Shown here one piece after another: positions 39,849-44,577 of a DNA stretch of 64,000 nt. A program made the position numbers and the translations under genes. Under the pieces are notes generated by a model, which made no database searches, was not told the origin of the DNA, and saw only the letters and a list, made by a program, of their open reading frames with translations. This DNA comes from Arthrobacter alpinus. GTDB taxonomy: Bacteria > Actinomycetota > Actinomycetes > Actinomycetales > Micrococcaceae. The number at the start of each line of letters is the position of its first letter. The stretch's first letter is position 1. Location: the NCBI RefSeq assembly GCF_001294625.1, contig NZ_CP012677.1:2418001-2482000 (forward strand). The letters run 5' to 3'.

Positions 39849-39924
39849 CGCCGAGGTAGACGGTACGCCTCCGAGCCGTCAGCTGCGCAGCGTTTGCCTC
39901 GGCACGGCTCCGTCTACCTCGGCG
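39849..39924 (-). terminator. Nested inverted repeat overlapping the regulator 3' end
   Basis: Perfect 15-bp arms (39849-39863 and 39910-39924; CGCCGAGGTAGACGG) enclose 46 bases that contain a smaller inner dyad (AGCCGT/ACGGCT). The right arm includes the stop codon of the SufR-like regulator. It probably separates that gene from iscS. Confidence 0.65.
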
Positions 39925-40687
39925 GGCCTGACCGCGGCAGCAGCCGGGCGCAGCAGTGGGAGATGTTCGCGTCGGGCGCCAGATCGTGGCGCTGATCCCC
40001 GCACCCTTCCAAGGCGCCGCTGAGCAGGGAACCATTAAGCGAGCACACCACACCCGTATGGTCTTGGGACAGCCGGTGGAAGGGGCAGTTGGCCATGATG
40101 GTTCCGCCTTCGCCGTCTGGCTCGGGACTATATCCGGCACTGTGCAGCAACTGGTGGATGTCCCCGGCCGCGGCCCCCCTGCGCTGTCCCTCCCGGTACG
40201 CCACCTGCGCCAGTGACTTTTCAATGTCCGTCCCGGTGTCGATCGAGTGCTGCACGGCAGCGGCCAACAATGAAGCGGCAAGATCGTAGTGCCGCGGCGG
40301 AACTGAGGCGCTGACTTCGCTGTGCGCGGCGGTGTAGAGCTTGGTGGGGCGCCCGGATCCGGGCCCGGTCCTCTCCCCCATCTTGCGAAACTCAACCAGC
40401 AACAACCGTTCCTCAACAAGCCTGTCCAGGTGCGCCCGGATGGTGCTCCTGGGCAGGCCGAGCCCCGCTGCACAGTCATCACGGCTCAACGCGTGGCCGG
40501 AATCGCGCACCAGTTCAAACAGTTTCTTTCGCAACGGGTCCCCCAGTGAGGCAACTGCTGCAAGCCGCTGGCCGTCGTCAAGCCCTGAACGCAGTGCCAC
40601 CATCGTGTCAGCGTTCGCCCTTGTGCTGATCTGCACAATCTGCTTGTCTGGATGGTGTGTGGACGGGTGCCGCACCGGTTGATTCAT
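39914..40687 (-). CDS. SufR-like winged-helix regulator with Cys ligands for a possible Fe-S cluster
   Basis: From ATG 40687 the protein has 257 residues. An ArsR/COG2345-type winged helix covers about 40-115 (LGDPLRKKLFELV, RSTIRAHLDRLVEERLL). The C-terminal part has C201-x13-C215-x13-C229-x15-C245-C246, close to the C-x12-C-x13-C-x14-C cluster site of cyanobacterial SufR, and CPFHRLSQDHTGVVC is typical of this family. It is therefore likely a redox- or Fe-S-responsive repressor. An upstream ATG at 40738 would add 17 residues but lacks a ribosome site. It diverges from the folE operon, whose promoter holds a perfect dyad, and lies upstream of iscS. Confidence 0.82.
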   Translation of the reverse strand: MNQPVRHPSTHHPDKQIVQISTRANADTMVALRSGLDDGQRLAAVASLGDPLRKKLFELVRDSGHALSRDDCAAGLGLPRSTIRAHLDRLVEERLLLVEFRKMGERTGPGSGRPTKLYTAAHSEVSASVPPRHYDLAASLLAAAVQHSIDTGTDIEKSLAQVAYREGQRRGAAAGDIHQLLHSAGYSPEPDGEGGTIMANCPFHRLSQDHTGVVCSLNGSLLSGALEGCGDQRHDLAPDANISHCCARLLPRSGPPR

Positions 40688-40761
40688 CACCGTTGGCCTT
40701 GTGCTCTCTTGCCGCCGCGCATTCCGCGCCGGTGGCATGTTGTGGATTGTTTCGCGCCTAC

Positions 40762-40790
40762 TTGACGCTTTGAGTCTGCGCTTCTAAAGT
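40762..40790 (+). promoter_or_regulatory. Promoter of the folE operon
   Basis: TTGACG (40762-40767) and TAAAGT (40785-40790) are spaced by 17 bases, a good fit to a primary sigma promoter. The -10 overlaps the left arm of a dyad, the arrangement expected for repression. Confidence 0.6.
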
Positions 40791-42777: not shown

Positions 42778-43706
42778 TGGAGGGTATGAACTCGCCGTTT
42801 TATACCCCGCCGCTGCGCCACCCTGTGCGCCAGTTCGGCGCCAGGACCTTGGATTTCAGCCACCAGGTGGCCCTGATGGCCATCGTCAACCGGACACCTG
42901 ATTCCTTTTACGACCGCGGGGCCACCTTTGCCCTGGACGCCGCGGTGGCCGCTTCCCTGGCTGCCGTGGACGACGGCGCCGACTGGGTTGACATTGGCGG
43001 GGTACCTTTTGCCCCGGGGCCGGCCCTGGGCGCCGCGGAGGAAGCCGACCGCGTGATCCCGGTGATCGAGGCTGTGTCGGCGGCCAGCAACGTCATCATC
43101 TCGGTGGACACCTTCTTGCCGGAGGTGGCACTGCGGAGCATCGCCGCCGGCGCGCACGTCATCAACGACACCACCGGTCTGGCCAACCCCGAGATCGCGT
43201 CCGTGGTGGCCCAGTCGGGCGCCCACCTGATCATCACGCATTCACTGGCCAAACCGCGCACCGTGTTCCCACAACCCCGCTACAGCGACGTTGTGGCGGA
43301 GGTGGCGGCGTTCCTGAACGACAAGGTGGAGCTGGCCATGTCCTTGGGCGTCCCCCCGGAGAAGATCATCGTCGATCCAGGACACGACCTGAACAAAAAC
43401 ACCTTACACACCCTGGAGATCACGCGCCGTTTCAACGAGATCGCCGCACTGGGGTTCCCGTCGCTGGCTGCCGTGTCCAACAAGGACTTCATTGGCGAGA
43501 CGCTCAACCAGGACAAGGCAGCCAGGTTGGAAGGCTCGCTCGCCGCCGGAGTGATCTGCATTTTAGGTGGCGCCCGGATTCTGCGCATGCACAACGTGGC
43601 CTCCGCCAGCTCCGCCATCCACATGACCGAGGCGGTGCTGGGGTGGCGCGAACCTGCCTATCTCAAGCACAACATGGGCGACGTGAACGACGCTGCCCGC
43701 AGCTAG
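42777..43706 (+). CDS. FolP2-like dihydropteroate synthase paralogue
   Basis: This 309-residue TIM barrel belongs to the pterin-binding family. Kept are IVNRTPDSF (38-43 core), D72-IGG, SVDT (D111), IND (131), DPGHDLNK (D200, K207) and MHNV (H272). The canonical DIGGESTRPG loop is replaced by DIGGVPFAPGP, and the SRK substrate motif is SNK (234-236), as in M. tuberculosis FolP2, which was reported to lack dihydropteroate synthase activity. It may bind a pterin but join it to something other than p-aminobenzoate. The start overlaps the preceding stop. Confidence 0.85.
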   Translation: MEGMNSPFYTPPLRHPVRQFGARTLDFSHQVALMAIVNRTPDSFYDRGATFALDAAVAASLAAVDDGADWVDIGGVPFAPGPALGAAEEADRVIPVIEAVSAASNVIISVDTFLPEVALRSIAAGAHVINDTTGLANPEIASVVAQSGAHLIITHSLAKPRTVFPQPRYSDVVAEVAAFLNDKVELAMSLGVPPEKIIVDPGHDLNKNTLHTLEITRRFNEIAALGFPSLAAVSNKDFIGETLNQDKAARLEGSLAAGVICILGGARILRMHNVASASSAIHMTEAVLGWREPAYLKHNMGDVNDAARS

Positions 43707-43767
43707 ACCCAGCGCCCGTCCGCCACACCCCGCCCTGCGGGGACCTGCCAAACTTCAGGAGCACGCC

Positions 43768-44577
43768 ATGATTGAGCGAATCTTCCCGGCAACCCCGGAT
43801 GCCTCCGGCCCGGCCAGCGATCAAGACCTGCTGCGGTGGTATGGTTCCGGCCTGCCCGAAGATCCCGCCGCGCCGTGGGTCAGCTTCAACTTTGTCGCCA
43901 GCATCGATGGGGCTGCGACCTTAAATGGCCGCTCCGGAGGACTCGGCAACGCCCAGGACCAACGCGTATTCCAGTTGCTGCGCCGACACGCCGACGTGAT
44001 CGTGGTGGGTGCTGCAACCATCCGGGCCGAAGGCTATGGCGGGGCGCTGCTCAGCGAGGAGGCACAGCGGTGGCGCACCAGCCGGGGCCTGGCCGGGCAC
44101 CCGCCGCTGGCCATCGTCTCGGGCACCCTGAACCTGAATCCGGCCCATGAGGTATTCGCCCGGGCACCCGTGCGCCCCCTGATCTTCACGGTTGCCAGCG
44201 CCCCGGCGGAGCGAAGGGAGGCGCTGTCCGGGGTGGCCGACGTCGTACTGGTGGGCGGTGAATCCCTGGACGTTGGGTTGCTGGTCGGCGAACTGGCATC
44301 CCGCGGCCTGTTCCGGATCCATTCCGAAGGCGGGCCGACCCTGCTGGGCACCTTCCAGGCCGCCGACCGCGTCGACGAGCTGTGCCTGACCATCTCGCCA
44401 CTGCTAGCCGGCGGCTCCGGACCGCGCATCTCGACGGTAGCCGGGCCGGGCACAGCCGGGTCGGGAACCGGCCAGGCCGCCCACACCATGGCGCTGGCCC
44501 AGATCCTCAAGGCAGACTCGATGCTGTTCCTGCGCTACCTGCGCCCGGGCAGCCAAATACCCGAAGCAGCACGATAA
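43768..44577 (+). CDS. RibD C-terminal/DHFR-fold pyrimidine reductase family protein
   Basis: The 269-residue protein has only the reductase domain of RibD: NFVASIDGAATLNGRSGGLG, VIVVGAATIRAEGYGG, the NADPH-binding HSEGGPTLLGTF and a C-terminal LCLTISPLLAGG. It resembles M. tuberculosis Rv2671, which can stand in for dihydrofolate reductase. It probably reduces a pterin or flavin precursor with NADPH. ATG 43768 has GGAG upstream. It follows the FolP2-like gene by 61 bp on the same strand and is the last gene of the set, converging on a lipoprotein gene. Confidence 0.85.
   Translation: MIERIFPATPDASGPASDQDLLRWYGSGLPEDPAAPWVSFNFVASIDGAATLNGRSGGLGNAQDQRVFQLLRRHADVIVVGAATIRAEGYGGALLSEEAQRWRTSRGLAGHPPLAIVSGTLNLNPAHEVFARAPVRPLIFTVASAPAERREALSGVADVVLVGGESLDVGLLVGELASRGLFRIHSEGGPTLLGTFQAADRVDELCLTISPLLAGGSGPRISTVAGPGTAGSGTGQAAHTMALAQILKADSMLFLRYLRPGSQIPEAAR

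What the first reader, a model, noticed from the sequence alone, without database searches (positions are those of the whole stretch)
39914..44577. Possible redox-controlled pterin pathway: SufR-like regulator plus FolE, ferredoxin reductase, FolP2-like and RibD-like genes
Seen: folE, a BphA4-type reductase, a FolP2-like barrel and a RibD/DHFR-fold reductase lie in one plus-strand set, and the reductase stop overlaps the FolP2-like start. A regulator with five C-terminal cysteines diverges from it. folB and folK are absent. Known: FolE makes dihydroneopterin triphosphate; M. tuberculosis FolP2 was reported to lack DHPS activity; Rv2671 (RibD-like) can act as a dihydrofolate reductase. Inference: the operon makes or recycles a pterin that is not ordinary folate and is switched on when Fe-S or redox state changes, with the ferredoxin reductase supplying electrons.
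Basis: partly seen in the sequence, partly recalled or inferred. Interest (0 to 1): 0.75.

Follow-up and report, generated by a model that had tools for sequence, protein, structure and literature searches.

The report
Iron-sulfur-type switch over extra pterin genes
A soil bacterium carries a second, partial set of folate-like (pterin) genes under its own regulator, which resembles a known iron-sulfur sensor of nitric oxide; the same regulator and DNA switch recur in related bacteria, so the set looks like a stress response rather than the ordinary vitamin pathway.

Summary
Confirmed: regulator REG diverges from folE'-FDR-folP2-ribDL. The genome also has canonical folE-folP-folB-folK and a DHFR, so this is an extra set. 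It belongs to a conserved regulon: palindrome TTCTAAAG-N13-CTTTAGAA (40782-40810) covers the -10 hexamer of the operon. In 80 named REG loci, 86 sites with up to 2 mismatches lie before REG (52 loci) or before a separately placed FDR (34 of 35 loci), none elsewhere, none with a reversed pattern. The only other such site in this genome lies before a doxX-like gene, the commonest REG neighbour. Three REG cysteines have exactly the spacing of ArnR, a [4Fe-4S] NO-responsive repressor, so 'ArnR-like' fits better than 'SufR-like'. FolP2 and RibDL are a conserved pair (adjacent in 42 of 47 genomes with close copies of both). All 58 FolP2-like proteins aligned keep seven residues recalled as pterin/pyrophosphate contacts and lack Thr62 and Arg63, which argues against ordinary pABA condensation. 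Best reading: an Fe-S/NO-switched regulon (DoxX-like protein, FDR, FolE') that in some lineages gained FolP2-RibDL, raising or modifying tetrahydropterin supply under stress. Inducer and product are inferred; FDR as electron donor to pterins is not shown.

The parts
39914..40690 (-). REG, ArnR-like winged-helix regulator with invariant cysteines C202, C216, C246, C247 (ORF may start at 40738)
40762..40790 (+). sigma-70-like promoter TTGACG-N17-TAAAGT; a second candidate TTGAGT-N16-AATAAT ends at 40797
   Evidence: 2 found, shuffles mean 0.1; consensus match only
40782..40810 (.). operator TTCTAAAG-N13-CTTTAGAA overlapping the -10 hexamer(s)
40821..41426 (+). folE', second GTP cyclohydrolase I; CxHH and HxC motifs kept
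41527..42777 (+). FDR, BphA4/HcaD/NorW-type NAD(P)H reductase
42777..43706 (+). folP2, DHPS-2-type protein without Thr62/Arg63 of DHPS
43768..44577 (+). ribDL, Rv2671-type RibD_C/DHFR-fold reductase
38549..39778 (-). NifS/IscS-type cysteine desulfurase, next gene after REG on the same strand (135 bases away), then mnmA (37358-38497); not counted as part of the pterin set, but possibly co-transcribed with REG

Best explanation
REG is an ArnR-like, probably [4Fe-4S]-binding repressor that sits on the palindrome over the -10 of the divergent promoter. Loss or modification of its cluster, most likely by nitric oxide or oxidants, releases a regulon whose widespread core is a DoxX-like membrane protein, a BphA4/NorW-type reductase (FDR) and a second GTP cyclohydrolase (FolE'). 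In this and several other actinobacterial lineages a separately conserved pair, FolP2 plus RibDL, has come under the same promoter. FolE' raises dihydroneopterin triphosphate; the canonical FolB and FolK supply the pyrophosphorylated pterin; FolP2 acts on that pterin without ordinary pABA chemistry; RibDL reduces the dihydropterin product with NADPH. Net effect: stress-inducible tetrahydropterin supply, folate-like or modified. Shown by sequence: the gene set, the operator and its targets, the FolP2-RibDL pairing, the active-site losses and retentions, the second complete folate pathway. Inferred: the cluster, the inducer, repression as the direction of control, and each catalytic step.
For: Operator on the -10; 86 of 86 sites with up to 2 mismatches before REG or FDR in 80 loci, reversed-pattern control 0; own-genome second site before a doxX-like gene, and the same in G258; ArnR cysteine spacing X13/X29; REG model pLDDT 85.5 with ArsR-type winged helix and, weakly, the TRAPP Bet3 fold that the ArnR paper also names; a REG homologue beside hemerythrin and Crp/FNR-type genes and more distant REG-like regulators beside a molybdopterin oxidoreductase and a multicopper-oxidase/cupredoxin protein; FolP2-RibDL adjacency in 42 of 47; FolP2 residues; FolE' motifs; canonical folB/folK present; FolE' relatives inside C1-folate gene clusters.
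Against: No cluster, inducer or product was measured. 28 of 80 REG loci lack a site with up to 2 mismatches before REG, and L060 and L062, which carry the full set, lack one too. 8 of 80 REG loci have no recognised divergent partner. The motif was read off the REG promoters themselves, so those 52 hits are not independent; the FDR and doxX sites are. The reversed pattern finds 1 site in this genome at up to 2 mismatches and 15 against 17 in eight relatives. FolP2-RibDL is absent from 20 of 20 REG loci read in other families, and 26 FolP2-RibDL loci without REG show no operator, so pterins are not the regulon's general purpose. Twelve genomes have a close FolP2 without a close RibDL and eight the reverse. 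The TRAPP match has E 0.039.
Confidence: 0.5

Rival explanations
1. Ordinary folate booster: under stress the cell adds extra copies of folate enzymes (FolE', a weak DHPS, a DHFR-like RibDL); the product is normal tetrahydrofolate.
For: FolE' keeps its motifs; FolP2 passes the TIGR01496 DHPS cut-off (243.1 against 162.6); [quoted passage not shown] FolE' relatives lie in sarcosine-oxidase/SHMT/PurU/FolD clusters.
Against: Thr62 and Arg63 lost in 58 of 58 FolP2-like proteins; M. leprae folP2 does not complement an E. coli folP mutant (PMC1971073, passages).
Confidence: 0.25
2. Two unrelated modules share a promoter by chance of history: REG-FolE'-FDR serves one stress role and FolP2-RibDL another.
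For: Either module is found without the other.
Against: The joined order recurs in several genera of Micrococcaceae, in Microbacteriaceae genera and in Georgenia; FDR is beside FolP2-RibDL also without REG in f18.
Confidence: 0.1
3. One reading: FDR supplies electrons to the pterin enzymes and the product is a non-folate pterin.
For: FDR-FolP2-RibDL order in f18 and in REG loci; FolP2 active site.
Against: FDR is a REG target where no FolE', close FolP2 or RibDL was found and stands alone beside REG in 7 of 80 loci; RibDL resembles an NADPH enzyme (recalled), needing no ferredoxin.
Confidence: 0.1
4. Antifolate self-protection: FolP2 and RibDL blunt sulfonamide- or PAS-like compounds.
For: folP2 deletion raises sulfamethoxazole sensitivity and ribD mutations are tied to PAS resistance in M. 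tuberculosis (PMC7809127, passages).
Against: Control by an Fe-S-type regulator together with DoxX-like and FDR genes does not suggest drug sensing; Sul1-Sul4 models are far below cut-off.
Confidence: 0.05

Closest known systems
ArnR of Corynebacterium glutamicum ([4Fe-4S], NO-responsive repressor of narKGHJI and hmp; PMC12343034, passages read)
   Same: Winged helix plus cysteine sensory domain; Cys spacing X13/X29 identical to window REG; same TRAPP-type fold suggested
   Different: REG has a further invariant Cys (C247); its targets are doxX-like, FDR, folE' and folP2-ribDL, not nar/hmp; cluster and NO response untested
SufR
   Same: wHTH regulator with C-terminal cysteines
   Different: No TIGR02702 match at E 0.001; no suf operon recognised beside REG
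Mycobacterial FolP2 / DHPS 2 (2vp8)
   Same: Best PDB relative; same loss of Thr62/Arg63 in the printed alignment
   Different: RibDL-adjacent type has fixed F62, L190, N220, D222; the other FolP2-like genes are not beside RibDL in the loci read
Rv2671 (4xrb), called a DHFR analogue
   Same: Best PDB relative; NF010663 passed (185.0 against 184)
   Different: Here next to folP2; two sister models (NF010664, NF010665) are below cut-off
Canonical actinobacterial folE-folP-folB-folK cluster
   Same: Homologous FolE and FolP
   Different: No folB or folK here; own regulator; FolP2 loop altered; the canonical cluster is elsewhere in the same genome

Membership tests
ArnR-like [4Fe-4S] regulators | N-terminal winged helix-turn-helix | tested here: met
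ArnR-like [4Fe-4S] regulators | three cluster cysteines spaced X13 and X29 | tested here: met
   C202-X13-C216-X29-C246 in window REG against Cys179/193/223; the second spacing varies in other homologues
ArnR-like [4Fe-4S] regulators | TRAPPC3-like sensory domain | tested here: inconclusive
   2cfh, prob 0.99, E 0.039, TM 0.30/0.43
ArnR-like [4Fe-4S] regulators | [4Fe-4S] cluster and NO-sensitive DNA binding | not testable with these tools
   needs purified protein
ArnR-like [4Fe-4S] regulators | control of nar and hmp | tested here: not met
   The two sites with up to 2 mismatches in the genome are at folE' and a doxX-like gene; this lowers 'is ArnR', not 'works like ArnR'
SufR | match to TIGR02702 | tested here: not met
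   no family at E 0.001 for REG
Dihydropteroate synthase | Thr62 and Arg63 in loop 2 (roles recalled) | tested here: not met
   F and A in the window; 0 of 58 FolP2-like proteins have T62 or R63
Dihydropteroate synthase | N22, D96, N115, D185, K221, R255, H257 (roles recalled) | tested here: met
   58 of 58
FolP2 (DHPS 2) | closest solved relative and shared loop-2 change | tested here: met
   2vp8, E 2.9e-56
Rv2671-type reductase | sequence relation to 4xrb and NF010663 | tested here: met
   E 3.8e-46; 185.0 against 184 bits
GTP cyclohydrolase I | CxHH and HxC motifs | tested here: met
   24 of 24 rows, including the canonical copy; NF006826 and NF006825 above cut-off, TIGR00063 below (169.5 against 181.6)
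BphA4-type ferredoxin reductase | Pyr_redox_2 and Reductase_C domains | tested here: met
   no equivalog cut-off reached (HcaD 302 of 450, NorW 143 of 392)
DoxX family (genome's second operator target) | PF07681 | tested here: inconclusive
   own copy has no Pfam match at E 0.01; four relatives match at 21.1-23.5 bits, under the 23.6 cut-off; own copy aligns to REG-linked relatives at about 50-56% identity

The most novel reading that the evidence does not exclude
FolP2 and RibDL, two actinobacterial paralogues without an agreed reaction (mycobacterial FolP2 and Rv2671 types), are consecutive enzymes of an unknown tetrahydropterin cofactor pathway: FolP2 couples the 6-hydroxymethyl-dihydropterin unit to an acceptor other than pABA and RibDL reduces the product. 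In several lineages the pathway, with its own FolE', is switched on by an Fe-S/NO sensor through a dedicated 29-bp operator.
Probability: 0.25. Interest if true: 0.85.

Novelty: new variant of a known kind. Interest (0 to 1): 0.6.

Why it matters
FolP2 is reported not to act as a DHPS (PMC1971073, passages) and has no assigned reaction; Rv2671 is known mainly through PAS resistance and DHFR-like activity. Their adjacency in 42 of 47 genomes with close copies of both ties the two into one testable pathway. The sharp operator makes the regulon predictable from sequence and links pterin supply, a BphA4-type reductase and a DoxX-like protein to one Fe-S-type sensor. In the held library no paper has Rv1207 and Rv2671 together, or DoxX, ferredoxin reductase, GTP cyclohydrolase and actinobacteria together; the one paper with dihydropteroate synthase, RibD, gene cluster and Arthrobacter is a Corynebacterium genome report seen as a listing. 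The library misses most subscription journals.

Tried and rejected
SufR membership: rejected. Normal folate pathway in an odd layout: rejected. Defence system: PADLOC gave only weak Csa3 matches for REG. Riboflavin: six other RibD_C matches exist in the genome; not followed. Operator at FolP2-RibDL loci without REG: none in the 26 scanned of 28 (L054 and L075 not scanned). VIA-align rows spanned mainly residues 38-127 of REG, so the sensory domain was barely tested by it. No ArnR binding-site sequence was seen in PMC12343034 or PMC10436651, so operator likeness to ArnR was not tested. PMC11995493 gave passages without a binding motif. Rv2621c, called ArnR-like in PMC12343034, is listed with the membrane-protein gene Rv2620c as a co-changing locus in PMC10470581 (one passage); whether Rv2620c is DoxX-like was not tested. 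The other papers were seen as listings only.

Limits and dropped rows: gene calls in relatives come from a home-made codon model; it missed folE' in L042 and over-extended REG there, put right, and made no FolP2 call in L054, L098 and L101. Alignment A1 leaves out the truncated L138 call and trims L042 by eye. Loci were fetched for 60 of the 271 genomes with any FolP-like match, chosen by me from the ranked list; 20 class-level REG loci were chosen from 85 listed places of 150 bits or more in 71 genomes (my count). The co-occurrence lists were copied by hand with cut-offs 268 and 140 bits, plus one partial RibDL match (G268) beside its FolP2; the Fisher p ignores relatedness. The FDR tree has no set of unrelated BphA4 reductases as outgroup. 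The search for homologous proteins scored only 8000 candidates. Many neighbour names are by eye.
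Full report
1. What is there. The set is as described: REG on the minus strand, then folE' (40821-41426), FDR (41527-42777), folP2 (42777-43706) and ribDL (43768-44577) on the plus strand. FolP2's best solved relative is mycobacterial DHPS 2 (2vp8) and RibDL's is Rv2671 (4xrb). The genome is one contig of 4.05 Mb, rated 100% complete. It holds a second folE and folP, followed by folB and folK, and one DHFR match, so this is an additional, incomplete pterin set.

2. 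The FolP2-RibDL pair. In 297 genomes of the order, 59 have a close FolP2 (268 bits or more), 55 a close RibDL (140 bits or more, plus one partial match), 47 both, 12 only FolP2, 8 only RibDL and 230 neither (Fisher p about 7e-35, relatedness ignored); the two genes are adjacent in 42 of the 47. In the 61 loci read (window plus 60), FolP2 was called in 58, RibDL in 32 and FDR in 14. More distant FolP2-like genes lie instead beside a GT2 glycosyltransferase (Pfam on one) or a LOG-like gene (by eye). That agrees with the statement that folP2 of high-GC Gram-positives clusters with cell-wall genes (PMC1971073, passages).

3. FolP2 active site. Against a Klebsiella DHPS, 58 FolP2-like proteins (31 from loci with RibDL, 27 others) all keep N22, D96, N115, D185, K221, R255 and H257, and none has T62 or R63. 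Those with RibDL all have F62, L190, N220 and D222. The roles of these residues are recalled, not from a call: the kept ones hold pterin and pyrophosphate, the lost ones shape the pABA/pyrophosphate loop. This predicts pterin binding without ordinary pABA chemistry, in line with the failure of M. leprae folP2 to complement E. coli. It does not by itself explain why folP2 deletion raises sulfamethoxazole sensitivity in M. tuberculosis (PMC7809127, passages). FolP2 still passes NCBIfam's DHPS model.

4. The regulator. C202, C216, C246 and C247 are invariant in the 21 REG sequences aligned. ArnR's cluster cysteines 179, 193 and 223 have the same X13/X29 spacing as window REG (PMC12343034, passages); in other REG homologues the second spacing varies. 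That paper reports a [4Fe-4S] cluster, NO-sensitive DNA binding and a TRAPPC3-like sensory domain. The REG model (mean pLDDT 85.5) matches ArsR-type winged helices and, at rank 28 with prob 0.99 but E 0.039, TRAPP Bet3. SufR's model does not match. More distant REG-like regulators lie beside a molybdopterin oxidoreductase resembling nitrate reductase (L171) and, in this genome, one gene away from a protein with cupredoxin and multicopper-oxidase domains (L167). One REG homologue (L144) lies beside a hemerythrin-domain gene and a Crp/FNR-type gene. NO or a related signal is therefore the favoured inducer, by inference.

5. Operator and regulon. Between REG and folE' lies TTCTAAAG-N13-CTTTAGAA (40782-40810, the one inverted repeat reported), overlapping the -10 of TTGACG-N17-TAAAGT and of a second promoter candidate. 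A named-genome scan kept the best 80 REG loci. Their divergent units: doxX 42; folE'-FDR-folP2-ribDL 15, and 1 more with doxX in front; FDR 7; folE'-FDR 2; doxX-folE'-FDR 2; folE'-FDR-folP2 1; folE' 1; doxX-folE' 1; none recognised 8. Full sets occur in records named Arthrobacter, Specibacter, Paenarthrobacter, Microterricola, Leifsonia, Cryobacterium, a Microbacteriaceae MAG and Georgenia. In 1.12 Mb, 86 sites have up to 2 mismatches: before REG in 52 loci, before a separate FDR in 34 of 35 loci, none elsewhere, none with the reversed pattern. The motif was read off the REG promoters, so only the FDR and doxX sites are independent. At up to 3 mismatches there are 100 sites against 13 for the control; 4 of the 100 were unassigned by that script, two of which fall before FDR or REG under the wider limits.

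6. Genome-wide test. With up to 2 mismatches this genome has two sites, the window's (0) and C1:3761358 (1); the reversed pattern has one. The second site lies about 10 bases before a doxX-like gene 1.3 Mb away. In 8 relatives 7 of 7 perfect sites are at REG/doxX, REG/folE' or FDR promoters. Of 5 one-mismatch sites, 1 is at FDR, 1 at doxX, 1 before a membrane gene matching DUF1440 under its cut-off, and 2 look like chance. Counting up to 2 mismatches, 17 sites stand against 15 for the control, so weak matches mean little.

7. How the modules joined. In other families of the class, 20 REG loci read show doxX in 14, folE' in 9, FDR in 9 and FolP2 or RibDL in 0. The 26 FolP2-RibDL loci scanned that have no REG beside them show no operator; L060 and L062, with the full set, also lack a site with up to 2 mismatches. 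So REG with DoxX, FolE' and FDR is the widespread regulon, and FolP2-RibDL a lineage-specific addition. FDR is the bridge: it lies with FolP2-RibDL in 10 of 13 f18 loci (two genes apart in one), and the window FDR groups with FDRs beside the cysteine desulfurase in other Micrococcaceae (98/99).

8. Role of FolE'. Second-type FolE (188 bits or more) was found at 28 places in 26 genomes, 12 of them beside REG (my count). In family f7 it sits instead with sarcosine oxidase, SHMT, FolD or PurU genes (confirmed by NCBIfam in L154 and L155), pointing to local boosting of pterin supply where folate C1 flux is high. By analogy FolE' here is an auxiliary pterin source.

9. Verdict. The regulon is well supported by sequence, the sensor type is likely, the product is open.

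Noticed in passing
L255:6459-7877 (this genome) and L271: A trimethylamine monooxygenase gene (NF058570, 745.7 against 675 bits) lies just upstream of the operator-bearing doxX-like gene in this genome, and a similar gene precedes doxX in G258.
   Followed up: partly
L167 (G000:C1:3694000-3707000): A second REG-like regulator of this genome lies near a large protein with cupredoxin and multicopper-oxidase domains, possibly a copper nitrite reductase fusion.
   Followed up: partly
L153-L157, L165: FolE' relatives sit in sarcosine oxidase / SHMT / FolD / PurU clusters without REG.
   Followed up: partly
L162, L164: A patatin-like protein (by eye) lies between the doxX-like gene and folE'.
   Followed up: no
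L270 (G005:C12:132545): A one-mismatch operator lies before a small membrane-protein gene that matches DUF1440 under its cut-off; possible further REG target.
   Followed up: partly
window:37358-39778: Cysteine desulfurase and mnmA follow REG on the same strand, and do so in many Micrococcaceae REG loci, where FDR may be inserted between them on the other strand.
   Followed up: partly
window:44585-45343: A protein without Pfam match, lipoprotein-like by eye, has homologues near REG in many Arthrobacter loci.
   Followed up: no
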